Virus record (IMG/VR): IMGVR_UViG_3300024999_000075
Coordinates: 1-64,000 of that record
Length of the DNA stretch: 64,000 nucleotides
Strand: one strand, 5' to 3'
Source: a virus
In this document: piece after piece, positions 46,055 to 62,949 of the stretch
Numbering within the stretch: position 1 is the first letter of the stretch
How the letters are laid out: each line of letters starts with the position of its first letter
Program-made: the position numbers and the translations under genes
The notes under the pieces: model-generated
What the model was told of the DNA's origin: nothing
The model's input: only the letters and a program-made list of their open reading frames with translations
Database searches by the model: none

Positions 46055-46960
46055 TCAATATTTAGTTATATCGTTAATATCGCGCATCCCCTTAGCAATT
46101 GGCTGGCGGGGAGCATTGATGCTTCCGTATTTCTGATACTTATAAGTCCACAGACTGCCCATGAACTTATTCTGATTGTCCCAGATATATTTACGGACAT
46201 TATCCGTCAAGCCTATGCCTGTACCAATGGCAAATGGCTCATCCCATAGAGCTGACTTGACCACCAAGGCACCAAGAGTTCCTTTACCGACCTTGTTCTC
46301 CTTATGGGCTGATCTGACATTCAATCCTAATTCGTTAGTATAAACTTCATTGCCATTGAGCATCTGCTCCTCAAAGCCTATCACCACACACTCGTCATCT
46401 TCTACAGGTTTTCTCTTGAATATATTCATCTCTTTGAATGTACACCTGCCTTGTTTGTATCGCCCCTCTCTGGTCCTGATCATGCCACCTTCGTAATCGT
46501 TGTCCACACACCACTGAGTAAAATCTATGACAGCTTGAGGATCTCCCAACAGCTTTTGTTCAAGCACTTGTACTCCAGGAGGGAGGATACTTTCATTCAG
46601 CAGATCTAATCTCACCCCATATGGCAAACTCAAGTCACAAGCTATATTGTCAAATACATAGAAAGTAAAGTCAGGTTCTCCAACCTTACGCCTTACTGGT
46701 CCGGTAGTATTGTTGAAAACATCTGGATCATTGGGAGCACCTACAATTAACTCCCCATCCAGACCACTGTATTCTGGTTGGGATAAGATGCCTTGAATGT
46801 AGTCATTTGTTATCTTCTTCATTGAAGAGGTAAAAGCACCATTCATAGTTGTGCATCGGTAACCATCAAGCTTGACACTCCCGTAAACTGGATATGGTAG
46901 CATGTCTAACTGCTCATCAGTGATACTGGTACTCGGTGCCTTCATGGGTTTCTTGATCAT
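46055..46960 (-). CDS. ATP-dependent DNA ligase
   Basis: 301 residues; the ATG at 46960 is chosen because GGAGGAG precedes it, although the frame is open further upstream through a terminator hairpin. KLDGYR gives the adenylated Lys30 (KxDG); also seen are LDGELIVG, EGGMIRTREG and IFKRK, the remaining nucleotidyl-transferase motifs. An OB-type C-terminal half follows. Seals nicks in phage DNA replication and repair. A sigma70 promoter and a hairpin leader lie upstream (46982-47106), so ligase can be expressed separately from the operon. Confidence 0.9.
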   Translation of the reverse strand: MIKKPMKAPSTSITDEQLDMLPYPVYGSVKLDGYRCTTMNGAFTSSMKKITNDYIQGILSQPEYSGLDGELIVGAPNDPDVFNNTTGPVRRKVGEPDFTFYVFDNIACDLSLPYGVRLDLLNESILPPGVQVLEQKLLGDPQAVIDFTQWCVDNDYEGGMIRTREGRYKQGRCTFKEMNIFKRKPVEDDECVVIGFEEQMLNGNEVYTNELGLNVRSAHKENKVGKGTLGALVVKSALWDEPFAIGTGIGLTDNVRKYIWDNQNKFMGSLWTYKYQKYGSINAPRQPIAKGMRDINDITKY

Positions 46961-46981
46961 TTCTATTCTCCTCCACGGTTT

Positions 46982-47022
46982 AAAAAGAAAAAGCCTGAAA
47001 CGGACTACCCGTTTCAGGCTTG
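46982..47022 (-). terminator. Intrinsic terminator in the ligase leader
   Basis: 13-bp stem AAGCCTGAAACGG / CCGTTTCAGGCTT, 5-base loop, then TTTTTCTTTTT on the minus strand. It lies between a promoter (47078-47106) and the ligase ribosome site. Confidence 0.88.
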
Positions 47023-47071
47023 CAGGATTTTTATCACCGCAGCCCGATGAGAGTCTGTTACCACAGTGATA
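46985..47071 (-). ncRNA. Candidate small RNA or transcription attenuator
   Basis: A transcript from the promoter at 47078-47106 would start near 47071 and end at the terminator, about 90 bases, with no reading frame of note. Its first part can pair TTTATCAC with GTGATAAA (8 bp) around a 28-base region containing a small CTGT-GGTA-ACAG hairpin, giving a structured domain before the terminator stem. Read-through would express ligase. Either a riboswitch or attenuator-type leader or a stand-alone small RNA. Confidence 0.5.
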
Positions 47072-47077
47072 AATATT

Positions 47078-47106
47078 TATATAGCCTAAGGCCAAACTAA
47101 TGTCAA
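47078..47106 (-). promoter_or_regulatory. Strong sigma70 promoter
   Basis: Minus strand TTGACA (perfect), 17 bases, TATATA. It overlaps the last codons of the 47103 gene. Confidence 0.75.
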
Positions 47107-47492
47107 GCTTTTTTAACTTGCTCCATCTCAATCGTAAGCTGGCCAATCTTCTTATATAGTGCGCCAAGCTGCTCATCACAATCACATCCTGGAGCTGGGT
47201 CTTCAGCTTTGGCGAAGATCTCGTGTAGCCTGTCTATAGCCTCCTTCTTCCAGGTACTTACTGTCACCGGGTGGATGTCATGTTCAGTTGCGATTTCAGC
47301 TATAGTGGTTGCTCCTATCAGTGCTTGGATGGCCACATCCGCCTTGAACTTCGCTGGGTATCTGGCTCGTTTTCTAGTTGTTGTCTCCATGGTTGTCTCC
47401 TCCATCTGGGGTTGTTTACTCGGCCTATAACATTCACAATGGTAAGACTTGTGAACATTACAGTACCCACTACTATCAACTATATCAGTCAT
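47103..47492 (-). CDS. IS3 OrfA-like helix-turn-helix protein without OrfB
   Basis: 129 residues from ATG 47492, or 95 from an internal ATG at 47390 that has its own GGAGGAG site. RARYPAKFKADVAIQALIG, then TTIAEIATEHDIHPVTVSTW, then LGALYKKIGQLTIEMEQVKK reproduce IS3-family OrfA: HTH followed by leucine-zipper helix. No OrfB frame or inverted repeats are visible. The first 34 residues are phage-specific and carry CNVHKSYHCEC, a possible zinc site. Embedded in the operon with coupled start; probably a domesticated DNA-binding protein. Confidence 0.78.
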   Translation of the reverse strand: MTDIVDSSGYCNVHKSYHCECYRPSKQPQMEETTMETTTRKRARYPAKFKADVAIQALIGATTIAEIATEHDIHPVTVSTWKKEAIDRLHEIFAKAEDPAPGCDCDEQLGALYKKIGQLTIEMEQVKKA

Positions 47493-48020: not shown

Positions 48021-48212
48021 CTAATAATATGTCAACTTTTTAACAGCTTTACTAAAAGTATCAAAATCTATGGAACAGCCCATTGCACCCCAGTCAAAAT
48101 CCAAATACGAGTAATCTTCATATAGGGTTTTGATCTCCAGTTGAGACATGCCAGGATGTAAACGTTTACCATACAGTCTGCGGATTTCTCTTATTGCTTG
48201 TTCAATATTCAT
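48021..48212 (-). CDS. Small hypothetical protein
   Basis: 63 residues, helical N-terminus (IEQAIREIRRLYGKRL), coupled to the Rad50-like gene upstream by ATGA. Confidence 0.62.
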   Translation of the reverse strand: MNIEQAIREIRRLYGKRLHPGMSQLEIKTLYEDYSYLDFDWGAMGCSIDFDTFSKAVKKLTYY

Positions 48213-50326
48213 ATCTCCACCACCTGGTCTGCTGCCATCTCCGACTGACTCTCATGAGTCACAATAAACTTCTGACCTCTTATAGTTTGAATTGCTGCCA
48301 GTGCTGCCGCTGTTCTCTCCTCGTCCATGTCCCCGAACGGTTCGTCAAAAATCATAAATCCAGCAGTTGGAGCAAAAATATCTCTGACTGCTGCCCTCAG
48401 GGAGATCCCAAGGATAGATTTGGCCGAGCCTGAAAGCCGAGAAGTGGGACGGGCATCTACAGTAAAACCTTTCTCTGACTTCTCCACTACAGAATCTTCT
48501 CCTCTCATCTCGGAGAAGGACTGTTGAGTGTAATCTAGGACTTTGTTCCAGACTTGATTTAGAACAAGTGGTTTAGCATCCCTGACAGATTTTATGATTT
48601 TACTATTCCTGTCCTCAGTCTTCAAGGACTCACCTATATTGAGAATGGTCTTCGCCACTCTGGTCAGGTTGTTTTTATTGGTCTCTATCTTAGCCTTGGC
48701 TAACACTATCTCCTTCTCCTTATTAGTCAGCTGAGTATTAAGCTCAGTTTGAGTCTGGACTAACTTAGTTAGCTCACACTCATTGTCAAAGATCTCCTTC
48801 CGCTTGACTGAGGTATCTACTTCCTGACCAGCATCGGTCAGTTCTAATTCCTTCTCAGTCAGCTCGACCCTCAGCCGCTCTAGGGCTGATGTCTTCTCCT
48901 TTATAGTAGCATCACATGAAGCCAGTTTCAAGAGCGACTGTTGATAATTATTTATAATTTCTTTAGCCGAGGTAAGTTCTTGTTGACTGGGTTCTTGTGT
49001 TGGTTCTCCTGAGAGGCTGTAATGATGAGGAATATTATCACAGTCTGCTAAGATGAAATCTCCGTGTTGTTTTACTTCTCCCTCTAGTTTTTGGTGGGTT
49101 GTCAAGATCTGATCCAAGGTGATCTTCTCTTCCTCATCTTGTTGTAAGGTAATCTTGTAGCTCCTGATCTTACTCTCCAGAATATCTACATCTTCAGCGA
49201 TCTTCTTGTTGATTGCCTCAACCTTGTCCTTCACATCTGTACCACACTTGGTACATACTGTATCCACCTGGATACCTTTCTTTAGGGATTTTATCTCACC
49301 CTCAGCACTGGCAACCTCAGCCCTGACTCTCGTTATGTTCTTGTTTAAATCAGCAATAGTCTTAACCAGCGCCTCCTCAGACTCATCCCAGAAGTTTTCT
49401 GAAGGCTTGATACTGCTGACCCATTGGTGTGCTTTGAAAGCTTTTTCTCTTTCAGGGAAACCTTCTACCAGTGCCTGGGCTTCTTCTATGGTTGCTGTGT
49501 TGAAGACTGGAATCTTCTCCAACTCTTGCTGTGCTGAGGTTAATGCAGATTCTGCATATTGAATCTCTGACTTCTTGGTTGTCACAGCCTTGGCAATGTT
49601 GGTGATGCTTTGATTCACCAACTCAATTGTTTTTAGTTTTTCTTCGAGAATTTTGATGGCGTTGCGCTTTCCGGCAACTACTATTTCTTGAGCTGTGATG
49701 AGATTGATGTCCTCAAGCTTTTCTTCTTCAAGCTTCTTAACATCTGGTAATTCTTCTTGCTGGTATTGGAGCTGTTCAGCTTCAGCAGTTTCCAGCTGAC
49801 CTTTGAGAGCCTTCTCATTGCCAGTTGGGTAGACTTCTTTGATCTTGTCGAGAAGTTGATCTATTTGGTTAAAACCAGCAATATCTTCAATGAATTTAGT
49901 TACTTCCGCACTACCTTTACTGATCACGCCAGCGGTGTCACCTTGAGTTGAAACAAGTACCAGCTTTTCAGTATTTTTGTAAACTCCAAAAAGCTTATAG
50001 AAAAAATCACTGACCTCAGCTTGCCCAGAGATAGGCTTCATACCACCACCTGATACAGAAGCAGATGTCTTACTCCTCGTTACTGTGTAAGGTCCATATT
50101 TCACAATAACTTTCAGTGAGTTTACTGGCTCACCATCAGTAACAACGTGAGTTATTGGGCAGTCTAACGTACTGGAGCCAAAGAAGCAGTACAAAGGACA
50201 TTGAATGAGGGCGGTAGATTTACCGGCTTCGTTCAAACCCCTCGTGACTATGAGTCCGTCCACGAAGTCAAGCTTCTTATATTTGATCTTACCAAAGTTG
50301 AAAATTTCTAACGATTCTATATACAC
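48209..50326 (-). CDS. SbcC/Rad50-like SMC-type ATPase
   Basis: 705 residues. Walker A GLNEAGKST at 30-38, long coiled coils with a zinc hook CTKCG near 357, ABC signature SRLSGSAKSIL near 632, Walker B FMIFDEPFGDMDE near 665. With the Mre11-like nuclease encoded just upstream (10-base overlap) it should form an SbcCD/gp46-47 type complex for processing DNA ends, recombination-dependent replication and host DNA breakdown. Shorter than bacterial SbcC (about 1000), as usual in phages. Confidence 0.92.
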   Translation of the reverse strand: MYIESLEIFNFGKIKYKKLDFVDGLIVTRGLNEAGKSTALIQCPLYCFFGSSTLDCPITHVVTDGEPVNSLKVIVKYGPYTVTRSKTSASVSGGGMKPISGQAEVSDFFYKLFGVYKNTEKLVLVSTQGDTAGVISKGSAEVTKFIEDIAGFNQIDQLLDKIKEVYPTGNEKALKGQLETAEAEQLQYQQEELPDVKKLEEEKLEDINLITAQEIVVAGKRNAIKILEEKLKTIELVNQSITNIAKAVTTKKSEIQYAESALTSAQQELEKIPVFNTATIEEAQALVEGFPEREKAFKAHQWVSSIKPSENFWDESEEALVKTIADLNKNITRVRAEVASAEGEIKSLKKGIQVDTVCTKCGTDVKDKVEAINKKIAEDVDILESKIRSYKITLQQDEEEKITLDQILTTHQKLEGEVKQHGDFILADCDNIPHHYSLSGEPTQEPSQQELTSAKEIINNYQQSLLKLASCDATIKEKTSALERLRVELTEKELELTDAGQEVDTSVKRKEIFDNECELTKLVQTQTELNTQLTNKEKEIVLAKAKIETNKNNLTRVAKTILNIGESLKTEDRNSKIIKSVRDAKPLVLNQVWNKVLDYTQQSFSEMRGEDSVVEKSEKGFTVDARPTSRLSGSAKSILGISLRAAVRDIFAPTAGFMIFDEPFGDMDEERTAAALAAIQTIRGQKFIVTHESQSEMAADQVVEI

Positions 50327-51297
50327 AATTTTACCTCCTCACGAAATTCTTCCAGTACATTTTCTAGGAGTAACCCCAGAATATTGAAGCCAGTAACCTC
50401 TTCCTTGTCTATCACCTCTCTTTCTTTTACTGTGACTTTGACAGCATTTGTGATAACAAAAGCACTACTGGTCTTCCGTAGTTGCGCAATAGAGCGAACA
50501 ACCGCAGGATATTCAACAACTTCGCAGTCTCCCACGACCCTAATAAAATGGTGGTCTATACTCTTAATCTCCGACCAGTGCATTTCAACGTAATCTCTTT
50601 CCACATTCCAAGTTTCTATGGACTCGAAAGTTTTGGCTTCTGAATCGTAGACCAAGCATTGCTTGGAACCAGATAAGCAGTCAGCAACTGAGGTTGGCCA
50701 ATGACAACCAACTATGTGTAGCTGTTCCAAATCTCTCTTTCCGTGCTCGTGGCCCAGCACTAGCTCAATTCCTCTGGCCTTCAGCTTCTGATACTGGTCT
50801 GTACTAAGATTCAATGAATGGTCAGCATGTTCAGCAAATGAGTTTGCAAAATTGCAATGCATGAAGCAAACTACGTTGTCTGGAATCTCTTCTACGTACT
50901 TATTGAATTGCTCCTGATCAAATACATGTGGGAGGAAATACATCCCTTGAATTAACTCTGGAACATGGAAAACCAAATATGTATGTGGTAGCAAAGCACC
51001 AACCAATTCTAGACTTGAGATCTCACCTGGCTTGTGGCTTAGACTATCATGATTACCTCTTAAGATTATAGCGTTCTCTTGCCGTAGTGCCAGATAAGAA
51101 TTGAGGATTGCCTTGTCACCAGCTGAGTATCTGGCGAAGAAGTCTCCTACAATTATCAAGCAGTCATGAGGAACTGTCTCTATCGTGTGTCTAAGTCTAT
51201 CGAAAAGGTGGTCGTCTAAAGCAATACGGGATTGGTTTGTTGTCCCTCCGACCCTTTCAGGTGCTATGTGTGTGTCACTAAGTATTAGGTATCTCAT
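50317..51297 (-). CDS. SbcD/Mre11-like nuclease
   Basis: 326 residues with metallophosphoesterase motifs: LSDTHIA at the N-terminus, IIVGDFF, LRGNHDS, CFMHCNF and LVLGHEHG. Partner of the Rad50-like ATPase downstream. Its start overlaps the stop of a homing endonuclease gene inserted just upstream in the operon, a sign that the endonuclease has been fitted in without breaking expression. Confidence 0.9.
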   Translation of the reverse strand: MRYLILSDTHIAPERVGGTTNQSRIALDDHLFDRLRHTIETVPHDCLIIVGDFFARYSAGDKAILNSYLALRQENAIILRGNHDSLSHKPGEISSLELVGALLPHTYLVFHVPELIQGMYFLPHVFDQEQFNKYVEEIPDNVVCFMHCNFANSFAEHADHSLNLSTDQYQKLKARGIELVLGHEHGKRDLEQLHIVGCHWPTSVADCLSGSKQCLVYDSEAKTFESIETWNVERDYVEMHWSEIKSIDHHFIRVVGDCEVVEYPAVVRSIAQLRKTSSAFVITNAVKVTVKEREVIDKEEVTGFNILGLLLENVLEEFREEVKLCI

Positions 51298-52159
51298 TCA
51301 TTCCTCCACTCCTGAATTTGATGTGGTAAATTGTTGTCTATTATAAATTGGTTTCTAGTCTCAAGAGCTAGTTCTTTACTATGAAATCTACCAAGATATA
51401 TTAACCTCTTCTTTTTTAAGGCAGCATAACCGATATAAGAAACCCACATCCCATCTAACTTACTATAGGATACTCCAGTATACCCAGAGGTATTACTCTT
51501 CATCCTCCCTCTGTTAATAACATTTAGAGAGTGATTGGTAAACCAACAGTTTTCAGGACAGTAGTTGCCATCATTATCCTTCCTGTCTATTTCTAGGTGG
51601 TCTTCATATCCGTTAGCCTCGGCCCAGTTATCGAATGCCTCGAAAGAAGACCTCCATTCATCACAGACAGCGATTCCTCTTCCTCCATACCTGTCGAAAC
51701 GGGTGTTATTACTATCAGTACATCTCTGTATAATATTACGCCACATTGTGTATATCCTCTCGTAACACTTATTGTGGGAGAGTTTTAGCATACCAGTGAC
51801 CTCTTTACGCAAACAGCCACATGACTTAGAATCACCGGATTTTAAGCCTGACATGTAAACTTCAACTTCGTTACCGCAGTCACATCTACACAGCCATGTA
51901 ATGTGCTTTTTAATGGTCTTAGCACGGCGCAATACCACCAATCTGCCAAACCTCTGCCTGCCCAAATCTACAAACTTATTAGTGCTGGCACACCCACATG
52001 ATTTTGTATGACCTCTCCGCAAACCTCCAGTTGTAGCCAAGGAAGTTTCCCACAGTCGCATTTACACAGCCACTGAACTTTCTCTCCTCTATTCTCTACT
52101 TTACTTACCACTGTCAACTTACCGAACTTTTGACCCACAAGATCTATTAACTTCACCAC
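51294..52159 (-). pseudogene. HNH-AP2 homing endonuclease with a frameshift
   Basis: Two frames together make one protein. Frame 1 (GTG 52159, GGGAGG site) gives GQKFGKLTVVS...WLCKCDCG; the rest (51294-52061) continues in another frame with LATTGGLRRGHTKSCGC. Joined, they form a zinc module that is then repeated (QRFGRLVVL...WLCRCDCG...SKSCGC), followed by HNH (MWRNIIQRC...YGGRGIAVCDEW...EIDRKDNDG) and an AP2 domain (SGYTGVSYSKLDGMW...YLGRFHSKELA). One base seems missing near 52035-52050. Either inactivated, or a sequence error. It follows a ribbon-helix-helix gene. Confidence 0.78.
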
Positions 52160-53225: not shown

Positions 53226-53642
53226 TTATTTCCACCCTATAATACTCAGTGCTTCTTTAATACTCCCCGCCTTCTTCCCAACCCCGTCCAACACCCAAGA
53301 GGGTTTACTCGGATCTAAGTTGTCCACATCAACCACTATCAACTCCTCACCAAGTTCCCAAAAATGGACCAGTACATAACCCCTGACACCAGAATCAGAC
53401 CACCTCTTCATGTCAGGAAGTTGTGAAAACTTCTTTAATCTAAATGTCTTGCCCTTCTGACTCTTACACTCAAAATGGCTTGGTTCCTCATTTATACACA
53501 AGAAAAAATCTGAAGGCTGGGCAGGCATATAGGTGAGAGCAGCTTTACCATCATGAAGTCGCCGCCAATGGCGACTTGTCTCAGTATTCTTCTTTAATTC
53601 GTCTTCTACGGCTTTTTCTAGGTAGTGCCCTGTATTCCTCAT
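53226..53642 (-). CDS. Holliday-junction-resolvase-like PD-(D/E)XK nuclease
   Basis: 138 residues. QPSDFFLCINEEPSHFECKSQKG shows the nuclease core (Asp in PSDF, then E-x-K), as in RecU-like resolvases. The N-terminal GHYLEKAVEDELKK helix fits the same fold. Would resolve recombination intermediates ahead of packaging, in keeping with the SbcCD-like pair downstream. Confidence 0.72.
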   Translation of the reverse strand: MRNTGHYLEKAVEDELKKNTETSRHWRRLHDGKAALTYMPAQPSDFFLCINEEPSHFECKSQKGKTFRLKKFSQLPDMKRWSDSGVRGYVLVHFWELGEELIVVDVDNLDPSKPSWVLDGVGKKAGSIKEALSIIGWK

Positions 53643-53651
53643 GATCCCGCC

Positions 53652-53945
53652 TCACCGAATATTTTGAGTTCCAATCAGCTTAGCCGGAACACCTGTCAAC
53701 CGATAGAACTCCGCAGCTTTCTCCCACACGTCAGTCAACCACTTTCCACTCATATCACTGACCAGAACATCCTCAACTTTAAAACCAACAATATTGTCTT
53801 CTATGTCAGCATCGTAGTACATGAACATTCTATCCAAGCCCATCTCTTCAATCCACTCATACAACTCACCACTAAAATCTCTGGGCTTTTCAATCTTACT
53901 TCCGAGTTCCCCAACTATCATTCCACCATCGTAATTAATCCCCAT
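53652..53945 (-). CDS. Hypothetical protein
   Basis: 97 residues from ATG 53945, chosen for its GGAGGG site; a longer in-frame start has none. MGINYDGGMIVGELGSKIE...YEWIEEMGLDRMFMYYDAD recalls a small family I have seen in other phages. No known activity. Confidence 0.65.
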   Translation of the reverse strand: MGINYDGGMIVGELGSKIEKPRDFSGELYEWIEEMGLDRMFMYYDADIEDNIVGFKVEDVLVSDMSGKWLTDVWEKAAEFYRLTGVPAKLIGTQNIR

Positions 53946-54207
53946 CTTTCGCCCTCCATTTCCCTTTAAGATTCTTACTGACTGTGACCACTGTATCTCC
54001 AACCAAAACACAAACAAGATCACCTGACTGGAAATATTTTGCCTCCTTCATCCTGTTATATAACAGTGAGGCAACCTTATTAACTGGCTGTACCTCTCTC
54101 CCAAAAGTCAGCATATTCAAAATCTTCTCCTTAACCACCTCCTCAGGTTTATCAGTCATTCTCCTCTGCTTAAATCTCATTATCGCATGTTTAGTCACCT
54201 CAATCAC
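53935..54207 (-). CDS. Small RelE/DUF4258-like protein
   Basis: 90 residues. IEVTKHAIMRFKQRRM, then a Leu/Phe helix, then LVCVLVGDTVVTVSKNLKGKW. The H-A-x-x-R-x-x-x-R start followed by paired strands is typical of DUF4258 or MqsR/RelE-like small folds, but no antitoxin partner is evident. Coupled by ATGA to the hydrolase gene upstream. Confidence 0.55.
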   Translation of the reverse strand: MIEVTKHAIMRFKQRRMTDKPEEVVKEKILNMLTFGREVQPVNKVASLLYNRMKEAKYFQSGDLVCVLVGDTVVTVSKNLKGKWRAKDGD

Positions 54208-55148
54208 ACCAAAACCTCCTCATGATAAAAATCATTTATGAATTGTTGAATACAACTCTGTCTCGCAAATACTGCTGTATGCCCTGCACCTTCAAATATT
54301 GTGAAGTCTCCAGAGGATACCTTATCCAAGATCCCTCTAGCCTGTTCTGGATGGGTTATCTCGTCATCCCCGCCAGCATACACAGCCACATGACAAGTGA
54401 TGTTTTCTAGTTTGGGAATGATACCACCACCAAGATCCCAAGTCCCTTCATATAACTCGTTCCCTATGAAATGATGTTCCATTCCTTGAAGGAACCAGCA
54501 GCCATGAAGATCCACATAAAAATTATACCAATCATCATCCCTATCCAACTTAGCTAGAGCCTTCTTATCATCCTGAAGAATATACAGGAATCGGTTGTAA
54601 TGTCTAGTGTGGAAGACTGGGATTGGATTGGCTAGAGCAAAAGCCAGCCACTGCATGAACCCTGGTTGAATCCCACCATAGAACCCTACCACCCATTTAT
54701 GATAAGCAATTGAAGCCACCTTACAGTAATCCTCAATAGCATTATCCATACCAGTTTTGAGGTCTATTGGGGAGGCAAAGAGAGCCAGTCTGCTGACCGA
54801 CTCAGGATACAGGGAGGTGTAGATTGCTGACAACCAACCACCCTGACAGATCCCAACTATATCAATACTCTCCTCCCCAATCATCTCCACACACTTCCTC
54901 AGTTTCTGAACCAGCCCCAAGACTGACAAGCCTCCAGTCTTGGTAGTGGCTGGCAGAAGCTCATACCAGTAGACTCTCAAACCCTCAGCAGCCAGAGAGT
55001 CAATCATTCTCTGAGCTACATTGCCATGCCTGCCAGCATGAGGCGGGACTACAAAGACTGCCTTCCCCGACCCTTGACAGGTGTGTTTGTGAAGCTTGAT
55101 ACAATCATCTTGATACAGTACCACATTGTTCTTGAATTCTTGTTTCAT
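54204..55148 (-). CDS. PhaC/PhaZ-like alpha/beta hydrolase with Cys nucleophile
   Basis: 314 residues. IDIVGICQGGW puts Cys101 in the G-x-C-x-G-G lipase box used by polyhydroxyalkanoate synthases; GGDDEITHP offers Asp261/262 and EGAGHTAVF His290. The Asp-His spacing (29) equals that of class III PhaC (Asp302/His331 of Allochromatium, from memory). Ordinary esterases have Ser in this position. It could build, cut or remodel PHA or acyl chains, or have a new role. It lies inside the replication operon next to DNA polymerase and has a possible own promoter. Length is close to class III PhaC (about 355) minus its ends; no phasin or PhaE partner seen. Confidence 0.72.
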   Translation of the reverse strand: MKQEFKNNVVLYQDDCIKLHKHTCQGSGKAVFVVPPHAGRHGNVAQRMIDSLAAEGLRVYWYELLPATTKTGGLSVLGLVQKLRKCVEMIGEESIDIVGICQGGWLSAIYTSLYPESVSRLALFASPIDLKTGMDNAIEDYCKVASIAYHKWVVGFYGGIQPGFMQWLAFALANPIPVFHTRHYNRFLYILQDDKKALAKLDRDDDWYNFYVDLHGCWFLQGMEHHFIGNELYEGTWDLGGGIIPKLENITCHVAVYAGGDDEITHPEQARGILDKVSSGDFTIFEGAGHTAVFARQSCIQQFINDFYHEEVLV

Positions 55149-55181
55149 TGGCTACCCCCTAGTTAAGGTTAAACATAAACC

Positions 55182-55210
55182 ATAATAGTCTAGGAGCAGA
55201 TAAATTACAA
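55182..55210 (-). promoter_or_regulatory. Possible promoter for the hydrolase gene
   Basis: Minus strand TTGTAA, 17 bases, TATTAT; the -35 begins at the stop codon of the DNA polymerase gene. Confidence 0.4.
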
Positions 55211-58200
55211 CTGTGCTAGCACTTGGTTGATTTTTTCTTCATCTACTGTATTGCCTATCTCTTTTAACTCACCGAAACTCCTACCAATCTTGATCACCGA
55301 CTCAAACTCCAGTGGGAAGCCAGCGTAGTTAGCAATCATGATTGGATGAGCCACCTTGAGGAACGGGATAACATCACCCCTATGGACACTAAAGTTCATC
55401 TCATCGTACACAGGAAAGAGGAAGTAGGCTCTGAATGTTTCCAGGACTCTCTGCTGCCAGATCTTAGCCATAGCTATCTTGGTCTGGGTAGCGGCTCCAC
55501 CTTGGATGATGTGGTTAATAGCACCTCTTAACTCATGCTTGTCTTTCCAGGTTCCGTCCAGCCGGAGATGCCGCCTTCGTCCCATTGGCTCAACAGCATA
55601 ACCTCTCTCCTCATGGAGAGCTGTCATATCGTCCTGCCACTTCCTGACCCCAGGAAAGATAAGAGTCTTAGCGTCCAGCAAGGCTTGAGCTTCTTCCTTG
55701 GTGATCATCAGATCAACTGCCAAGGTGATAGCCGTACCAAGATATAAATCCAAGAAGTTTACTGGCTTGGCTTTGGTTCTTGCATCCTTGATCTTCTTCC
55801 GTAAAGGATGGTCATCATCCTTCAGAATAGTCATGAAGGTATCATAATCAATCAACTGATCACTCTCAGGACCATACTGAGCCTTGATACCATAGTTGTA
55901 AACCTCCACCCCTGTCATGGAATGGATGTCCTTTCTGATTTCTCCTCTGAAGCAGGACAGCATCGCTTCATCCCCGGACTGTACGGCAGTATGAACCAAC
56001 TCCTGGCCGGTGAAGTCCATCGACACCCATACATGATTTTCTTCCAGCGGGACATAAACCTCCCGTACTCTACTAATCTTTGAGACCTGGGAGAAGTTGG
56101 GCTTATTCGATGCTGGCCTACCGGATTTGGTTAACGCCTGCCCACCGTTCGGGTGAACATAACCATCAGAGTAGTGGGGCATGTTCTGATAAGGAGCGTA
56201 GAACAAACTGTCCTCTGTACGGCAGCTGGTAGCCTTGACCACATGAAGTAAGAGATCCTTCTCAAAATTATCTCTGGCATCATAGGCAATAGCATGTTTG
56301 AAGGCATCGTCATTGGCTGATGGATTCCCTTCAGTCTTCCCCTCAGCTCTCATTTTATCAGAGAGCTTACCTCTGATCCTGATAGGATAACTCAAGGCAT
56401 CATACAGCAGTTCACACTTCTGTTTCGGGGATTTGAGGTTGATCTCAGCCTTAGGACTGAAGCTATATTCAGCTAAGGTATTCATGGAGACAAGACCAGA
56501 CTCTACAGCATCAGCAAACTCAACTTCACCCTCTTCTCTGATCTTCTCTACAATCTTTTCAATCTTCCGTACTGAAGTCTTCAGCTCTCTACCGGTATAG
56601 ATCAGGAAGAGTCGCTTGATCTCAGCTGGTGACAGCTCAGTAGCTGGGACGAACTTGGCTCCTGACCAGTAGTGATGGTGAGTGATATATTCAGGGGGGA
56701 GTTTAGCCAGATCTTTGATCTGCATTATATTCTCAGGAGTTATCCGGGGAATCTCCCGTACTATCTCCTCGGTCGTGGTCCACTCCATCCCTTCTAATGC
56801 CAGTTCAATGCAGTCAATGGTTTCATCATAGATCTTCTGGTTCTCTTCCTGGAGCATCTTACATTTCTCCAAGTCAAACTTCACTCCAGTAAGGAAACTC
56901 TCAGCGTACAGAAACTGAGAAGCAAGGTCTGCTTTCTCATAAGCATTCCAACTGCCCTCATATTTGGTTAAGAGTTCAGCGTAGCGGAAAAGAGCCACGC
57001 TGCACACGGAATCATCACATCCGTAGTTCAACACCTCTTGGCCGGTCAACTCGTTCATCTGAACGTTGGCTGATTCCTCTTCAAATTTAATTACTTCGTC
57101 ATCATTGTCATCACTGAATTCAAAGGCTGGTTTCTCAGTCACTTCACCAAATGTCACCTGTTTGTAACCCATCAGGATCTCACTCCAATGCTTGAGTGAG
57201 GCTGACTCGTATTCGTCACAATACCCCGCCAAGATCCTTGTATCGTAGGTGGTTGGGGGTAAGTATCCTCGGTCGAACTTAAGGATGAAGTGATTTCGTA
57301 ACACAGATAATTCGTAGGAAGTATTGTGTACGATGACCGGAACCTCCTCCGGCAGCAGGTTGAGAATCTCTTCAGCCTGCTGGAGAGTTATGTTGTCCGT
57401 GTCCTTGTGAGCTACGGAGAAGTAATAGTTCTTGTGGTTATTACTGCCGGTACAAAGGGAGAAACCAGCCAGGATTGCTCCCATGATATCAATGGGTGGC
57501 TTCTTGGCGGTCTTACTCTTGTTGGCTAAGGCCCAGGCTTTACCTTCTTCGGTAATGTAGGTTTCAATATCTAGGCCATTAAGTTTGGCTTGCCTAAATT
57601 CTATACTGAGTTTCTTCAGGAAATCTGGAGTGAGTTTGTCTTTGGTGATCAACTCCTTGGTAGACTCCCATTGTGTTAGGCTGCCATCCCCTGAGGGGTA
57701 GAGCATTCTGTATTCCAGATTATGGAATCCAGGATGATAGGGCTTAGCACATTTGTAGCTGTTGTAGACCTGCTCCTTACTGTCAAGGATCTTCTGAAAT
57801 GGTTTGAAGTCTTGGGCGTGAGCCTCCAATTCGTCTAAGGTCTCTTCCTCCAGCATAGCCTTAAGGTCGTCCAGTGACTCATCGCCATACTTTGATAAAA
57901 GATCTATGAAGCCTTGAGGCCCGACCCCGGCTGCACCTGGAATTTTATCCCCCGAGTCACCTACCAAACTCTTGTAGACAACAATATGTTCTTTCTTAAT
58001 CCCGCAGAAGTGGTCCTTGTTCAACTCTCCGTCAAAAAACACATCACCATGAGCCAACATGTCTCCATCACCCGACCAGATAACACAATCAAGTGACTTC
58101 GCAAAAAATGCAATAATATCATCAGCTTCCACACCCTCCTTTTGGACACTGATGGCTCCATACTTCAGAAGAGTGGTTTCAAACATATCCACCAGAGCTG

Positions 58201-58498
58201 TGTACTCTTCATAAAACTCTGGGGGACCAGCCGGGCGCTTGCTGTACTCCGGTAGGAACTGTCTTCGGAATTGCTTACAATTCTTTCCGTCTTTAACTAA
58301 TATTATCTGCGAGGGGGTCATATTCAAAGTAGTGAGAGTCCTCTCCAGGCTAGATAACGCAATCTGATACGCTTCTTTATGACACCCTACTTTCACTTGT
58401 TTCTCGTTGAAGGTTACTAATTTTACTGAATCTTTGCTGGCTGCGGCGTGCAACATCATCTTTAAGATGTGTGAGCAATCTACTAAAAGTCTCTTCAT
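55205..58498 (-). CDS. Family A DNA polymerase with fused 5' nuclease and proofreading domains
   Basis: 1097 residues. Residues about 1-290 form a FEN-type 5'-3' nuclease (LLVDCSH, KEGVEADDII, WSGDGDML, VVYKSLVGDSGDKIPG). Then a 3'-5' exonuclease (GLDIET, VHNTSYELSVLRNHF). The polymerase part has motif A VSMDFTGQEL (Asp about 828), motif B RTKAKPVNFLDLYLG and motif C PVYDEMNF (about 1030) with Tyr where Pol I has His. The position equivalent to Pol I Phe762 is Phe. All domains look active. Most phages encode the 5' nuclease separately. Confidence 0.93.
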   Translation of the reverse strand: MKRLLVDCSHILKMMLHAAASKDSVKLVTFNEKQVKVGCHKEAYQIALSSLERTLTTLNMTPSQIILVKDGKNCKQFRRQFLPEYSKRPAGPPEFYEEYTALVDMFETTLLKYGAISVQKEGVEADDIIAFFAKSLDCVIWSGDGDMLAHGDVFFDGELNKDHFCGIKKEHIVVYKSLVGDSGDKIPGAAGVGPQGFIDLLSKYGDESLDDLKAMLEEETLDELEAHAQDFKPFQKILDSKEQVYNSYKCAKPYHPGFHNLEYRMLYPSGDGSLTQWESTKELITKDKLTPDFLKKLSIEFRQAKLNGLDIETYITEEGKAWALANKSKTAKKPPIDIMGAILAGFSLCTGSNNHKNYYFSVAHKDTDNITLQQAEEILNLLPEEVPVIVHNTSYELSVLRNHFILKFDRGYLPPTTYDTRILAGYCDEYESASLKHWSEILMGYKQVTFGEVTEKPAFEFSDDNDDEVIKFEEESANVQMNELTGQEVLNYGCDDSVCSVALFRYAELLTKYEGSWNAYEKADLASQFLYAESFLTGVKFDLEKCKMLQEENQKIYDETIDCIELALEGMEWTTTEEIVREIPRITPENIMQIKDLAKLPPEYITHHHYWSGAKFVPATELSPAEIKRLFLIYTGRELKTSVRKIEKIVEKIREEGEVEFADAVESGLVSMNTLAEYSFSPKAEINLKSPKQKCELLYDALSYPIRIRGKLSDKMRAEGKTEGNPSANDDAFKHAIAYDARDNFEKDLLLHVVKATSCRTEDSLFYAPYQNMPHYSDGYVHPNGGQALTKSGRPASNKPNFSQVSKISRVREVYVPLEENHVWVSMDFTGQELVHTAVQSGDEAMLSCFRGEIRKDIHSMTGVEVYNYGIKAQYGPESDQLIDYDTFMTILKDDDHPLRKKIKDARTKAKPVNFLDLYLGTAITLAVDLMITKEEAQALLDAKTLIFPGVRKWQDDMTALHEERGYAVEPMGRRRHLRLDGTWKDKHELRGAINHIIQGGAATQTKIAMAKIWQQRVLETFRAYFLFPVYDEMNFSVHRGDVIPFLKVAHPIMIANYAGFPLEFESVIKIGRSFGELKEIGNTVDEEKINQVLAQL

Positions 58499-58872: not shown

Positions 58873-59520
58873 TTAAACGTGACTGAGTGTTAATTCCATA
58901 TCGGGATCGTGACCGGGCTGTGCCTTAAGCCACCTAAGATACTGATAAGGAACTTTATCAATCAACAAGCCACGATGCTTACCATATGGCATAGTTTTAA
59001 AGCGAAGCGGGCGTTTAAGCCATTCTAACAACTGCCACACATTCATACCACTACCTTCACTCATATAACAGAGCAGCCCCCACACATTTCTCACATCACC
59101 ATAAGTTCTATGCGAAATATACTTTGGCAGGTCACAATACGTAGCTAGCGTATCCAACTGGTGGTTTGGAGCCATCGGAAGTAATCTTCTGGCTAATCTC
59201 AGAGTACATATAGTACCCACTATGTTCATGTAATCCTTAACCAGAGGGTAATCATAAGGCACGTTATGACAGCATAAGATAACCTCACCACTTGGCCATG
59301 GCAGGTCCTTCAGTTGAGGGGCATCTACTATAGCCTCAGCTGAGATTCCATGTTTTGCCTCAGCCTCTGGAGCTATAGGAATGTCAGTGTGAACAAGTGA
59401 AGAGAACTCAGATATGATATCCAAGTCATCGCTGATCTCACACATACCTACTTCAACCACACCAATTGGATCTACCAACCCAGTGGATTCGCAATCCAGA
59501 ATTATGATGTGATCAGGCAT
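58873..59520 (-). CDS. DnaQ-type 3'-5' exonuclease with DUF3820-like end
   Basis: 215 residues; ATG 59520 chosen because GGAGAG lies 7 bases upstream. HIIILDCESTGL supplies the first catalytic Asp/Glu, CCHNVPYDYPLV the second region, and HRTYGDVRNVWGLL the third with the last Asp. Near the C-terminus, FKTMPYGKHRGLLIDKVPYQYLRWL is the DUF3820-type motif often fused to such exonucleases. Proofreading or RNase T/ExoX-like trimming. Confidence 0.85.
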   Translation of the reverse strand: MPDHIIILDCESTGLVDPIGVVEVGMCEISDDLDIISEFSSLVHTDIPIAPEAEAKHGISAEAIVDAPQLKDLPWPSGEVILCCHNVPYDYPLVKDYMNIVGTICTLRLARRLLPMAPNHQLDTLATYCDLPKYISHRTYGDVRNVWGLLCYMSEGSGMNVWQLLEWLKRPLRFKTMPYGKHRGLLIDKVPYQYLRWLKAQPGHDPDMELTLSHV

Positions 59521-59773
59521 TTGACAGCTCTCCAATAACCTTTTCACAAGCATCATGCTTCTGTACAAACTCTTTCATCTTCAACTTACTGCGTGCCTCA
59601 GCATACTTCTTCACAGCATCAATCTCATTCTTACTGATACTGGGGTCCATCCGCCCAACCACCTCCTCGATCCTGATCTTGAACTCTTCCAAAGCTTCTT
59701 CCTTGTCAGTACCAATAAGAAACAACTCTTCTTCAGCTTCCTTAATCGTCAGTATCTTGATATCGTCTTCCAT
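59513..59773 (-). CDS. Helical hypothetical protein
   Basis: 86 residues, Glu/Lys-rich and almost wholly helical (coiled-coil-like). GAGGGAG site before ATG 59773; overlaps the exonuclease start by 8 bases. No family recognised. Confidence 0.66.
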   Translation of the reverse strand: MEDDIKILTIKEAEEELFLIGTDKEEALEEFKIRIEEVVGRMDPSISKNEIDAVKKYAEARSKLKMKEFVQKHDACEKVIGELSNA

Positions 59774-59790
59774 GTTATTTCTCCCTCAAG

Positions 59791-59967
59791 TTAAATTCTA
59801 TCCATGTAATTTAATGGAAACCTACGTTTACCTGATTGTCTCTCTTCTTCCTTTCTTACACATTCAGGACACGCTGGTTCATCATAAGGTAAGTGCCTAT
59901 ACTTAATGATACCGAACGTCTCCCCTCTTTTCTGTTCTCTGCCGCACCTACATGTTGTTGGTCTCAT
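59791..59967 (-). CDS. Small zinc-ribbon-like protein
   Basis: 58 residues from ATG 59967. CRCGREQKRGE and CPECVRKEEE provide four Cys in a zinc-ribbon arrangement with a basic C-terminus; DNA or RNA binding is possible. The start has only weak ribosome site support (GAGG). Confidence 0.6.
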   Translation of the reverse strand: MRPTTCRCGREQKRGETFGIIKYRHLPYDEPACPECVRKEEERQSGKRRFPLNYMDRI

Positions 59968-59987
59968 GTTAGCCTCAATTCTTGGAT

Positions 59988-60081
59988 GGCGTGCGCTGGA
60001 ATCGAACCTTCGCCTCCAGATATCCGTTCAAGGTAGCGCTACACCCTGTGTTACCAAACACCCAGATCCACCAGGTACGCC
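59988..60081 (-). other. Degenerate tRNA-like element
   Basis: On the minus strand GGCGTAC at the 5' end pairs with GCACGCC at the 3' end (six of seven), and GGTTCGATTCC near the 3' side matches the T-arm consensus. But the T stem pairs at only three of five positions, no 5-bp anticodon stem is evident, and the 94-base length has a surplus of about 20 bases in the D-arm region. Probably a decayed tRNA or a tRNA-mimic; not a functional tRNA by my reading. Confidence 0.35.
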
Positions 60082-60088
60082 AAATAAA

Positions 60089-60141
60089 AGTGGGCCAACA
60101 CATTGTCCAGAGCTGTTAGCTTAAGAGTATGTTGGCCCACT
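60089..60141 (-). terminator. Long-loop terminator-like hairpin
   Basis: Perfect 12-bp stem AGTGGGCCAACA / TGTTGGCCCACT with a 29-base loop, followed on the minus strand by TTTTATTT. Right after the stop of the 60150-60962 gene and before the tRNA-like element. Confidence 0.65.
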
Positions 60142-60149
60142 GGTTCAAA

Positions 60150-60962
60150 CTACATTGATACCGGAGTATACCCAGCGATCACATCCATTGGTACAGTCTC
60201 GAATATGAAGATAGTATAGTTGCCGCTATCTCCTGACTTTGGATCTGCCTTAAGTCGTATACAGTCCTGATGGGTAGCAGCCATTTGGCCTCGCATGATG
60301 AACAGTGGGGCTTGCATTGCGAATGCCTTGAGCTGCTTCATGGCGGTGGGGCTGATAGAGATCTGAACAATACCTAATCCTTGGGCCTTGTCCGAGTTAG
60401 CAGCAGCATTGAAAATCACTCCAAATATATCACGATACTTTGATGGGGGGTTGAATTCATAAACTGCTGAGGTCTTAGGGTTCATGAAGAGAGGTTTACC
60501 TTTGGTGTCAACAGCCTTCTGAATGGACTCAACATACGCCTCAATCGTGATGGAGTTTCCTTCACGGTCGATGATATTCTTGCCATCATAAGAGGCACGG
60601 CAGAGTTTCTTAGCTCCCTTATCGCTCTGGTCAGCAATAGGTGTAACCATCCAGCGATCAGAGAGAGACAAGCACTGCACATCAACGAAGTTCCCAAAGG
60701 TAGCTCCACCAGCACCAGAGACACAAGCCATACCGTTGGAGCCGACGATACGAGGAAACAAGTTCCCGAACTCTTCCGGGTTGAGTTTGTTTTCGAGGGA
60801 CATGAGGGAGGGGGCGATACGTTCTCCAGCTACGACGACATCAGCGGGAGGCTTTACAGCTACTTCTTTAGTTTCGGTCATAGTTTCTTCCTTCTTGGTT
60901 TCAGTTTCAGGTTCTTGGGTTTCGGTTTCCGGCATCTGTACTTTGTTAGTCCTTAATCCCAT
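60150..60962 (-). CDS. Hypothetical replication-region protein, separately expressed
   Basis: 270 residues. The first 40 are Glu/Thr/Lys low complexity (ETETQEPETETKK), followed by a globular part with VSGAGGATFGNFVDVQCLSLSDRW and IVQISISPTAMKQLKAFAMQ. It has its own strong promoter (61019-61047) and terminator, which suggests an abundant product. A single-stranded-DNA-binding protein would fit the location between helicase and exonuclease, but no OB-fold motif is visible, so this is a guess. Confidence 0.7.
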   Translation of the reverse strand: MGLRTNKVQMPETETQEPETETKKEETMTETKEVAVKPPADVVVAGERIAPSLMSLENKLNPEEFGNLFPRIVGSNGMACVSGAGGATFGNFVDVQCLSLSDRWMVTPIADQSDKGAKKLCRASYDGKNIIDREGNSITIEAYVESIQKAVDTKGKPLFMNPKTSAVYEFNPPSKYRDIFGVIFNAAANSDKAQGLGIVQISISPTAMKQLKAFAMQAPLFIMRGQMAATHQDCIRLKADPKSGDSGNYTIFIFETVPMDVIAGYTPVSM

Positions 60963-61018
60963 GGTGTTAGTTTCCTTTCTTGGCTTTAGGTTGTTGGTTA
61001 GGTACTACTGTATAAATC

Positions 61019-61047
61019 TTTATAGTTCAGTTTGGGTTGGAAGTCAA
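61019..61047 (-). promoter_or_regulatory. Strong sigma70-like promoter
   Basis: Minus strand TTGACT, 17 bases, TATAAA; in the gap between the 47-residue gene and the 60150-60962 gene. Confidence 0.7.
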
Positions 61048-61050
61048 CTG

Positions 61051-61194
61051 TTATTCTTCTTCCTGAAACATTTTTATGGCTTCATCATAACCATCCCAGT
61101 TGTCTACTCCAGCCGCCCTCAGACAGTGGAGAAATTCCTGGTCTTCTATGAGTTCTTCATATTCTTCCATTGTTATTGTGATGTGTTCACTCAT
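61051..61194 (-). CDS. Small acidic hypothetical protein
   Basis: 47 residues from ATG 61194 (GAGGTG site). MSEHITITMEEYEELIED...CLRAAGVDNWDGYDEA; the AGVDNWxGYDEA end is a pattern I recall in small phage and bacterial proteins. ATGA overlap with the helicase stop. Confidence 0.68.
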   Translation of the reverse strand: MSEHITITMEEYEELIEDQEFLHCLRAAGVDNWDGYDEAIKMFQEEE

Positions 61195-62666
61195 ATTTCA
61201 CCTCTTAATTCTTTGAATACTTGTTCCCTTGTCTTGGGCTTATCTCTAATAACATTAGGTACAAGCCCACCCTTCATTGTCCCATCAGTATCAATCACTC
61301 TGGTTATCAAATCCTCCTTTTCAAGTACCCTCTTTAATAAAGTCTGCTGAATTGTCTTCCTCGCTATCAGAACAACAGCCACTACAGTCTTCAAGTTACC
61401 TTGCCTATGTGCTCTACCTACAAGTTGCTCATAATCTCTAGCAGTTACCGGAAGTTCAGAGCAAATCACCAAGTTACAGTTGGGGAAGTCCAACCCAACC
61501 CCGCCAGATTTTGGGTTGCAGGCTAGTCCCTTTAAAGTTCCAGCTTTGAATGCTGCTATATATGTATTTCTTTCCTTGGCATTTACCTCACCGTAACAAG
61601 CCCCAATACTATATCTCTCCTTCACCGCTGCATTGGTAGCCACATAGTTGTTGAAGATCAGATACTGTGAATCTGTCTTCACAAGGTTGTCAAGGATCTC
61701 GAAGCCCACAGAATCCTTACTGTATCCTATAGGGGATGGCAGCATAATAACTCTCTGCGCCCAGTGATAAATAGAGGTAGCATTCAACCCGTTTACCAAT
61801 TCCTCGTCAGGCATTTGGATATACCTCTCATCCAGCATCCTGTTATAAGCCTCCAGATGTTTTGGATCAAGATCATATTCGATTACCTTTTGAATAAGGG
61901 GTGGTAGATCCAGGTAATCTGAAGACAATCTCCTTGATGCTCTATGCATGAGGTTGTCTCGGAGTAGATCTACGTTCTTGTACTCAACTGGTTGGTTGAA
62001 GTGGTTCTCCTTGGCTACGTGCAACCTATAGAATTGACTGTAGTTATCATAGATTTCAGGCGTAAGTACTTTCACCAGCCCATATGCCTGTTCGGTTAAT
62101 GCTAAGGGTGTAGCTGTCAACAGGCAGCAACCCTCATTAATCTTTTCATACTGAATCTTTTCTATTACCGGCATCAATTTACCTGGAATTTTCTTTGTCT
62201 TTTCTATTACACCTCCTTGCAGTTGCTTGAATAAAAGGTTCTGAGGATTACAGAGGATTGTTGCTTCATCAACGATAAAATAGATTCCCTTCTGCTTGAG
62301 TAGATCTCTATCCTTCTGGAAGATTTGAAAACTCATAACTAAAAAGTCTGAGTCAGTATCTATCTTCTTCCTTTGAGCAGGAGTACCAACATACGCAGCA
62401 ACCTTCACTCCCATTTTGGTTAACACCGAAACCCACTGTGTTATGATCGAAGCTGGACAAAGAACATAGCAAGAGTCAAAGCCTGTCAGCAATTTATACA
62501 CTGCTATAAGCGCAGATATAGTCGTTTTGCCTAGGCCAACCCCGTGAAAACATGCAAAATTTGGTTCCAGTGCTCCCCTATTTATATCAATTACTTGATA
62601 ATCATGGAGTTTACCTCCCTTAAACGGTAGCTTCGCATGTTCAAGTACCATTTCAACGGGGTTCAT
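61191..62666 (-). CDS. SNF2-like superfamily 2 helicase
   Basis: 491 residues from ATG 62666 (a TTG 21 bases earlier is also open). Motif I HGVGLGKTT (42-50), motif Ia YVLCPASIITQW, motif II IVDEAT, motif III LLTATPLAL, and in the second half SGGVGLDFPNCN and QLVGRAHRQG (motif VI with arginine finger). A dsDNA-tracking or fork-remodelling ATPase is expected; such helicases occur in replication modules of phages with family A polymerases. Confidence 0.88.
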   Translation of the reverse strand: MNPVEMVLEHAKLPFKGGKLHDYQVIDINRGALEPNFACFHGVGLGKTTISALIAVYKLLTGFDSCYVLCPASIITQWVSVLTKMGVKVAAYVGTPAQRKKIDTDSDFLVMSFQIFQKDRDLLKQKGIYFIVDEATILCNPQNLLFKQLQGGVIEKTKKIPGKLMPVIEKIQYEKINEGCCLLTATPLALTEQAYGLVKVLTPEIYDNYSQFYRLHVAKENHFNQPVEYKNVDLLRDNLMHRASRRLSSDYLDLPPLIQKVIEYDLDPKHLEAYNRMLDERYIQMPDEELVNGLNATSIYHWAQRVIMLPSPIGYSKDSVGFEILDNLVKTDSQYLIFNNYVATNAAVKERYSIGACYGEVNAKERNTYIAAFKAGTLKGLACNPKSGGVGLDFPNCNLVICSELPVTARDYEQLVGRAHRQGNLKTVVAVVLIARKTIQQTLLKRVLEKEDLITRVIDTDGTMKGGLVPNVIRDKPKTREQVFKELRGEI

Positions 62667-62949
62667 CTTCTTCCATCCTATCCCCAATCTCCCACAGCTC
62701 CAAGACTGTCTTGTCCGTCAGCTTACTCAGCAGCTGGAGATTGGTGTCATTGGATCTGTCCAGCAGTTCCGACTGCTGCTCGAACGCTTCTCGAAGGTGG
62801 GTGTAATGTTGTTTTTGAAAATGAAAACCTACAGCAGCGGCACAAACCGCTATCCCGACTATGCACCCAACAAGCCTATCGTTGTACTCATAGATCATAT
62901 ATGTCATCAAGGCACAGCCGAATATGAGTCCTCCTATTAAACCCATCAT
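62653..62949 (-). CDS. Membrane protein with cytoplasmic coiled coil
   Basis: 98 residues: two hydrophobic segments (LIGGLIFGCALMTYMI and LVGCIVGIAVCAAAVGF) then a charged helical tail. Overlaps the helicase start. Function unknown. Confidence 0.65.
   Translation of the reverse strand: MMGLIGGLIFGCALMTYMIYEYNDRLVGCIVGIAVCAAAVGFHFQKQHYTHLREAFEQQSELLDRSNDTNLQLLSKLTDKTVLELWEIGDRMEEDEPR

What the first reader, a model, noticed from the sequence alone, without database searches (positions are those of the whole stretch)
54204..55148. PHA-synthase-like cysteine hydrolase inside a phage replication operon
Seen: nucleophile box G-I-C-Q-G-G with Cys101, Asp261/262 and His290, Asp-His spacing 29, in a 314-residue alpha/beta hydrolase between a nuclease-rich small-gene cluster and DNA polymerase, with a possible own promoter. 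Known: class III PhaC enzymes use exactly this box, and ordinary lipases have Ser there; some intracellular PHA depolymerases also use Cys. Inference: the phage may tap, make or remodel host polyhydroxyalkanoate (carbon and energy store, granule surface) during infection. I know of no described phage system of this kind in a replication operon.
Basis: partly seen in the sequence, partly recalled or inferred. Interest (0 to 1): 0.78.

Follow-up and report, generated by a model that had tools for sequence, protein, structure and literature searches.

The report
Phage enzyme for bacterial storage polyester
A bacterial virus carries a gene for an enzyme related to those that build and break down polyhydroxyalkanoate, the polyester many bacteria store as food, and the same gene turns up in otherwise unrelated viruses, which suggests (not yet proven) that these viruses tap the host's stored food.

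Summary
In detail: window 55148..54204, minus strand, is a clean 314-aa gene with Cys101, Asp262 and His290, inside the replication operon of an ~81-kb tailed phage. It is not a chance Cys in a generic lipase. The best curated model is class III PhaC (TIGR01836, 5e-19, far below its cut-off). The AlphaFold model (pLDDT 93.6) has PhaC crystal structures as its 12 best PDB matches. C101/D262/H290 align with the PhaC triad and are invariant in all viral-contig homologues. It is probably not a PHA synthase. In the best trees it groups with a third clade of uncharacterised Cys enzymes (box G-L-C-Q-G-G-W), apart from PhaC and PhaZ, though AU tests do not exclude joining either. Of 80 cellular relatives, 15 lie within ~10 kb of a separate phaC; the phage has no detectable phaE, phasin or phaR. 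Best reading: a phage-borne enzyme that attacks PHA granules (depolymerase/thiolysis type). At 65-71% identity it is the only gene shared with two otherwise unrelated viral contigs; none of 50,697 phage records has it. Phage-borne phaC was reported in 2025 from PHA-producing cultures, so the theme is not wholly new. Substrate, direction of reaction and host remain untested.

The parts
54204..55148 (-). 314-aa cysteine alpha/beta hydrolase of the PhaC/PhaZ superfamily (the finding); Cys101, Asp262, His290, plus Trp207 and Asn230 conserved
55154..55162 (-). Shine-Dalgarno-like AGGGGG stretch a few bases before the ATG (read by eye, approximate coordinates)
   Evidence: sequence
54204..54207 (-). 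4-nt stop/start overlap (GTGA) with the next small ORF, suggesting translational coupling in an operon
   Evidence: sequence
53935..54207 (-). downstream small gene, 90 aa, PHROG 6182 (unknown function), E 1.2e-4
55205..58498 (-). DNA polymerase I-like protein, 1097 aa, immediately upstream
53226..53642 (-). Holliday-junction resolvase-like protein
   Evidence: phrog_843, 1.4e-8
46055..47185 (-). ATP-dependent DNA ligase, same strand
48209..51297 (-). SbcC-like and SbcD-like exonuclease subunits
51294..52061 (-). HNH endonuclease
58873..62687 (-). DNA polymerase exonuclease subunit (58873-59568) and DNA helicase (61191-62687) upstream in the same orientation

Best explanation
The gene encodes a phage auxiliary-metabolism enzyme that acts on the host's polyhydroxyalkanoate (PHA/PHB) store. 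Shown: it is a PhaC/PhaZ-superfamily alpha/beta hydrolase with a complete Cys101-Asp262-His290 set, PhaC-like predicted fold, PHB_depo_C-like C-terminal half and strong purifying selection; part of its cellular relatives lie in PHA or acyl-phosphate gene clusters that carry their own separate synthase; it occurs in phages that share nothing else. Inferred: it is made with the replication proteins, docks on PHA granules, and Cys101 attacks the polyester to form a 3-hydroxyacyl-thioester enzyme intermediate, which is released to water (3-hydroxyacid) or to CoA (thiolysis to 3-hydroxyacyl-CoA, as reported for Ralstonia PhaZ1). This would free carbon, acetyl-CoA and reducing power for virus replication when the host is starved.
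For: Best family match TIGR01836 class III PhaC 5e-19; TIGR01849 PhaZ 8e-9; all 8 phage proteins match both and all 8 match PHB_depo_C, the window protein at 25.3 bits just under the cut-off of 27. Foldseek of the pLDDT 93.6 model: PDB ranks 1-12 are all PhaC (TMq 0.62-0.74, eleven at 0.71 or more; most other hydrolases 0.47-0.57), best being CoA-bound PhaC. Triad aligned to PhaC, D262 to the residue that is Asp in 5xav and Asn in the 6k3c mutant. C101, Q102, G103, W207, N230, D262, H290 invariant in the phage set; C101, W207, N230 in 40 of 40 cellular relatives. The closest cellular relatives (Deltaproteobacteria MAGs, 31-32% identity) sit beside PhaR, small phasin-like ORFs and a separate PhaC+PhaE; 15 of 80 relatives have another PHA synthase in the fetched flank, 31 of 80 a PHA-core, acetate kinase, MaoC-phosphotransacetylase or FabI gene. 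Two of those delta genomes have no canonical PhaZ above cut-off; this protein is their best PhaZ match. It is the only gene shared by the window phage and the 59-kb and 37-kb contigs. Ralstonia PhaZ1 thiolysis: PMC3430594; Cys triads in PhaZ and PhaC: PMC11878206.
Against: No enzyme of this clade with measured activity was found, so substrate and direction are inferred. 65 of 80 cellular relatives show no PHA synthase in the fetched flank (many flanks are short), and ten of twelve genomes checked also have a canonical PhaZ. AU tests do not reject placing the phage clade with PhaZ (p 0.33) or with PhaC (p 0.37); profile similarity to PhaC III (6e-28) is higher than to PhaZ (2e-14). The phage clade lacks five residues behind the oxyanion loop and differs in the lid from the cellular clade, so its substrate may have shifted. 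Host unknown; no evidence that it stores PHA. No phasin match in the phage.
Confidence: 0.5

Rival explanations
1. A minimal PHA synthase (PhaC-like): Cys101 polymerises 3-hydroxyacyl-CoA, alone or with the host's PhaE, to make or remodel granules during infection.
For: Closest curated model is class III PhaC; top 12 folds are PhaC; PhaC-type Trp207 and Asn230 are kept whereas PhaZ has Glu at 207 and mostly His or others at 230; profile-profile score to PhaC III is higher than to PhaZ.
Against: 68.5 bits against a curated cut-off of 365; no PhaE in the phage; cellular relatives co-occur with separate bona fide PhaC or PhaC/PhaE; the segment behind the oxyanion loop that PhaC keeps is deleted in the window clade, as in PhaZ.
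Confidence: 0.14
2. A thioesterase/esterase of the same superfamily that has moved to another substrate (acyl-CoA, acyl carrier protein, membrane or surface lipid ester), used to free CoA or acyl chains or to modify the envelope.
For: Divergence in lid and oxyanion region from the PHA-linked cellular clade; in two relatives the gene lies among late or unassigned genes: L009 near terminase and portal genes, L010 after a block of large ORFs and convergent to helicase genes; many non-PHA alpha/beta hydrolases also match the fold.
Against: Lid Trp207/Asn230 and the PHB_depo_C pattern are kept across phage and cellular members; in the window and L011 it sits among replication genes.
Confidence: 0.3
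3. Generic serine-type hydrolase with a chance Cys, or a decayed or host-contaminant gene.
For: Identity to any cellular protein is only about 32%.
Against: Cys in 48 of 48 phage and cellular relatives (the search pattern contained the box, so this is partly by construction); PhaC-first fold ranking; purifying selection; the genome carries terminase, portal, protease, capsid and tape-measure genes; homologues at 65-71% lie in separate viral contigs.
Confidence: 0.03

Closest known systems
Class III PHA synthase PhaC (TIGR01836) with PhaE
   Same: alpha/beta hydrolase, Cys-Asp-His, G-x-C-x-G-G box, conserved lid Trp and Asn, best HMM and fold match
   Different: far below the family cut-off; no PhaE partner; shorter N terminus and no I-x-D-x-x-x-x-x-S segment; outside PhaC in the best trees, AU test not decisive
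Intracellular PHB depolymerase PhaZ (TIGR01849, PF06850)
   Same: Cys nucleophile, P-x-x-G oxyanion loop, same deletion behind it, P-G-F-[LM]-Q lid segment, G259, D262, Q269 conserved
   Different: box G-x-C-Q-G-G instead of [AS]-[VI]-C-Q-P; keeps Trp207/Asn230; far below cut-off; about 90 residues shorter
Uncharacterised cellular G-L-C-Q-G-G-W clade (annotated 'PHB de-polymerase domain protein' or 'alpha/beta fold hydrolase', e.g. pBVIE02 Bcep1808_7272) and DUF3141
   Same: same box, W105, T265, Q269; nearest in BLAST, profile comparison and the DUF3141-free tree (phage+cell 96/85)
   Different: the window-type phage proteins are about 40-60 residues shorter at the N terminus, lack five residues behind the oxyanion loop and have an altered lid
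phaC auxiliary metabolic gene in phages of PHA-producing mixed cultures (PMC12013262)
   Same: phage-borne PHA-enzyme gene, reported as transcribed
   Different: reported as PHA synthase, one case very similar to a host's phaC; the present gene has no close cellular copy and occurs across unrelated phages. The sequences of that study were not compared here.

Membership tests
Class III PhaC (TIGR01836) | score above the curated cut-off (365.3 bits) | tested here: not met
   68.5 bits, 5e-19; a true PhaC from L017 scores 437.6
Class III PhaC (TIGR01836) | Cys-Asp-His with G-x-C-x-G-G box | tested here: met
Class III PhaC (TIGR01836) | PhaE partner in the same genome | tested here: not met
   no TIGR01834 match in the phage; the same search finds PhaE in G011 and G012. 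The contig may be incomplete and host PhaE is not testable.
Class III PhaC (TIGR01836) | groups inside PhaC in a tree | tested here: inconclusive
   outside PhaC in the best trees but AU p 0.37
PhaZ intracellular PHB depolymerase (TIGR01849) | score above cut-off (300.75 bits) | tested here: not met
   34.7 bits
PhaZ intracellular PHB depolymerase (TIGR01849) | [AS]-[VI]-C-Q-P box and Glu at the position of Trp207 | tested here: not met
   (corrected table)
PHB_depo_C domain (PF06850) | score above gathering cut-off 27 | tested here: inconclusive
   25.3 bits in the window protein; cellular relatives tested score 44.3 and 67.7; all 8 phage proteins match at E<=1e-3
DUF3141 (PF11339) | score above gathering cut-off 29.7 | tested here: met
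   34.1 bits, partial match 144-331 of 582; but box and length differ from full DUF3141 proteins
G-L-C-Q-G-G-W cellular clade | common branch with these proteins | tested here: met
   phage+cell 96/85 without DUF3141; best BLAST and profile partner; alternatives not rejected by AU test
PHA-active enzyme | activity on PHA polymer or 3-hydroxyacyl-CoA | not testable with these tools
   needs assay
Phage auxiliary metabolic gene | inside a bona fide phage genome, horizontally spread | tested here: met
   that it is metabolic is inferred

The most novel reading that the evidence does not exclude
A dedicated phage branch of PHA-mobilising cysteine enzymes, carried by unrelated tailed phages and passed between them as a single gene, lets viruses use the host's polyester reserve during infection; and the cellular clade it belongs with is an unrecognised PHA depolymerase family of low-oxygen PHB use.
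Probability: 0.4. Interest if true: 0.78.

Novelty: new variant of a known kind. Interest (0 to 1): 0.6.

Why it matters
Virus-borne genes that redirect host metabolism are well known for photosynthesis, nucleotides and sulfur (own knowledge), but use of the bacterial polyester store is hardly documented. If confirmed, it would give a direct, testable way for a phage to stay productive in starved, PHA-loaded hosts, would matter for PHA bioproduction (phages that drain the product), and would give a function to a widespread clade now labelled 'alpha/beta hydrolase'.

Tried and rejected
Single-sequence scans of viral and genome collections gave nothing; alignment queries were needed. No homologue in 50,697 phage records by tblastn. 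Own promoter rejected as not above chance. PhaE, Phasin_2 and PhaR searched and not found in the phage or the other viral contigs; the Pfam PhaE model PF09712 rang nowhere and was replaced by TIGR01834, which rings in known loci. Tree placement between PhaC and PhaZ is not decisive (AU tests). An early residue table had some PhaZ and DUF3141 loci read on the wrong strand; corrected. Literature searches for a phage PHB depolymerase found none in the held library; 'polyhydroxyalkanoate + auxiliary metabolic gene' led to one real precedent (PMC12013262); the other papers opened mention PHA only in passing or as a host transcript effect. Host not identified.

Full report
OBSERVATION. The region 54204-55148 holds an open reading frame on the minus strand, 314 aa, ATG start; the plus strand is full of stops. 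It has a ribosome-binding-site-like AGGGGG before the start and a 4-nt GTGA overlap with the next small gene. The box V-G-I-C101-Q-G-G-W is there, the only G-x-C-Q-G-G among 140 ORFs of this phage. The Asp conserved in every aligned phage homologue is D262, not D261. The record is an 81,254-base viral contig with terminase, portal, head protease, major head protein and tape-measure genes. Its terminase, capsid and DNA polymerase are about 22-28% identical to those of ~80-kb phages of Pseudomonas (Lana, PMBT3, UAntarctica) and Vibrio (SHOU24). So it is a real tailed phage; a proteobacterial host is likely but not shown.

NEIGHBOURHOOD. Upstream on the same strand: DNA polymerase, exonuclease subunit, helicase; downstream: a 90-aa unknown, a resolvase-like protein, HNH endonuclease, SbcD/SbcC, ligase. 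In the isolates Lana and UAntarctica a similar block (helicase, polymerase, ligase) has no such hydrolase annotated, and tblastn found no homologue in any of 50,697 phage records. The gene looks like an insertion into a conserved replication block.

FAMILY. NCBIfam: TIGR01836 (class III PhaC) 5e-19, TIGR01849 (PhaZ) 8e-9, both below curated cut-offs. Pfam: DUF3141 above cut-off, PHB_depo_C just below it. A profile of the eight phage proteins finds PhaC sequences first among solved structures (1e-12 to 1e-6), aligning C101, D262 and H290 with the PhaC box, Asp and His; in the 6k3c mutant the residue opposite D262 reads Asn. AlphaFold2 with 32 sequences gives pLDDT 93.6, pTM 0.92. No structure of a TIGR01849-type PhaZ appeared in the listed hits, so fold rank cannot choose synthase against depolymerase.

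RELATIVES. Viral contigs: seven distinct homologues, two at 65% and 71% identity, two at 36-40%, three at 27-29%; an eighth (L013) duplicates L012. Their held sequence, including the full 59-kb and 37-kb contigs of L010 and L011, shares no other gene with the window phage at E<=1e-6. L011 places it beside primase-helicase and DNA polymerase; L010 after a block of large, mostly unassigned ORFs and convergent to helicase genes; L009 close to portal genes. Substitution pattern: pN 0.17-0.23 against saturated synonymous sites. So one gene, under strong constraint, occurs in phages that share nothing else, best explained by horizontal transfer.

Cellular homologues: 80 loci, mostly Proteobacteria, with Deltaproteobacteria MAGs closest, at best about 32% identity over most of the length. 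All 48 phage and cellular relatives aligned have C101, W207 and N230; the search pattern contained the box, so the Cys count is partly by construction, the Trp and Asn counts are not. The window clade shares with PhaZ a five-residue deletion behind the oxyanion loop and a P-G-F-[LM]-Q lid segment; it shares with PhaC the Trp and Asn. Tree: window+L009+L010+L011+L016 100/100; without DUF3141, phage+cell 96/85 apart from PhaC and PhaZ. AU tests do not reject clade1+PhaZ (0.33) or clade1+PhaC (0.37), so the deep order is open.

FUNCTION FROM CONTEXT. In the closest cellular relatives (L017-L020, L045) the gene sits next to phaR and small phasin-like ORFs (named by eye; those tested matched no family), with a genuine PhaC plus PhaE a few genes away (L017 PhaC 437.6 bits, over cut-off; its PhaE 3e-20, under cut-off) and, in L017-L020, a MaoC hydratase. 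Fifteen of 80 loci have a separate PHA synthase; 31 of 80 have at least one of a PHA-core, acetate-kinase, MaoC-phosphotransacetylase or FabI gene. With a few phaC per ~5-Mb genome, random 20-kb windows would hit one in roughly 1% of cases (own estimate, not a computed control). The synthase job is thus taken in those loci; in two Deltaproteobacteria genomes no canonical PhaZ reaches its cut-off and this protein is the best PhaZ match. Ralstonia PhaZ1 is described as granule-associated and thiolytic, releasing 3HB-CoA (PMC3430594), and PhaZ and PhaC are both listed as Cys-triad hydrolases (PMC11878206). An attractive inference is a PHB-to-butyrate route (3HB-CoA, MaoC, FabI, phosphotransacylase, acetate/butyrate kinase) in the clusters that hold these genes; this is not tested.

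MECHANISM (inferred). The phage makes the enzyme with its replication proteins; it attacks granule polyester with Cys101, assisted by His290/Asp262, and the acyl-enzyme is resolved by water or CoA. Likelihoods: PHA depolymerase/thiolysis 0.5; other thioester/ester substrate 0.3; synthase 0.14; artefact 0.03.

PRIOR ART. A 2025 study of PHA-producing mixed cultures lists phaC, phbB and others as transcribed phage genes (PMC12013262). PHA genes in phages are therefore known from metagenomes; the present branch, its spread between unrelated phages and its depolymerase-type context were not found described in the library searched.

Noticed in passing
L008 1530-2351 (genome 65530-66351), minus strand: 273-aa secreted-looking protein, PHROG 6856 (unknown function, 5.6e-57), which by eye resembles a TAXI/TRAP-type periplasmic binding protein; odd in a phage.
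   Followed up: partly
L008 13213-14496 (genome 77213-78496), minus strand: tRNA nucleotidyltransferase (PHROG 2244, 7e-67) in a phage in which ARAGORN finds no tRNA gene.
   Followed up: no
L008 15483-16187 and 16618-17244: Two proteins built of short repeats (VSDNARVSGNARV..., LTSVGGYLFVEADFQAPA...) near the contig end.
   Followed up: no
L010 19200-19445, L011 5134-5478, L014 3644-3850: A small membrane-like protein (about 50% identical over ~67 aa) is shared by three otherwise unrelated hydrolase-bearing contigs; no match from the window phage.
   Followed up: no
L030, L025, L055, L070, L022 (cellular loci): Clusters combining this hydrolase with two or more of FabI, MaoC-phosphotransacetylase, acetate kinase and PhaC look like a PHB-to-butyrate fermentation module; not every locus has every gene.
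   Followed up: partly
L017 12765-14348 and orthologues in L018-L020, L045: A ~530-aa protein in the Deltaproteobacteria PHA loci with only a weak PhaC match (TIGR01836 6.7e-6) and no Pfam hit: possibly another unnamed PHA protein.
   Followed up: partly
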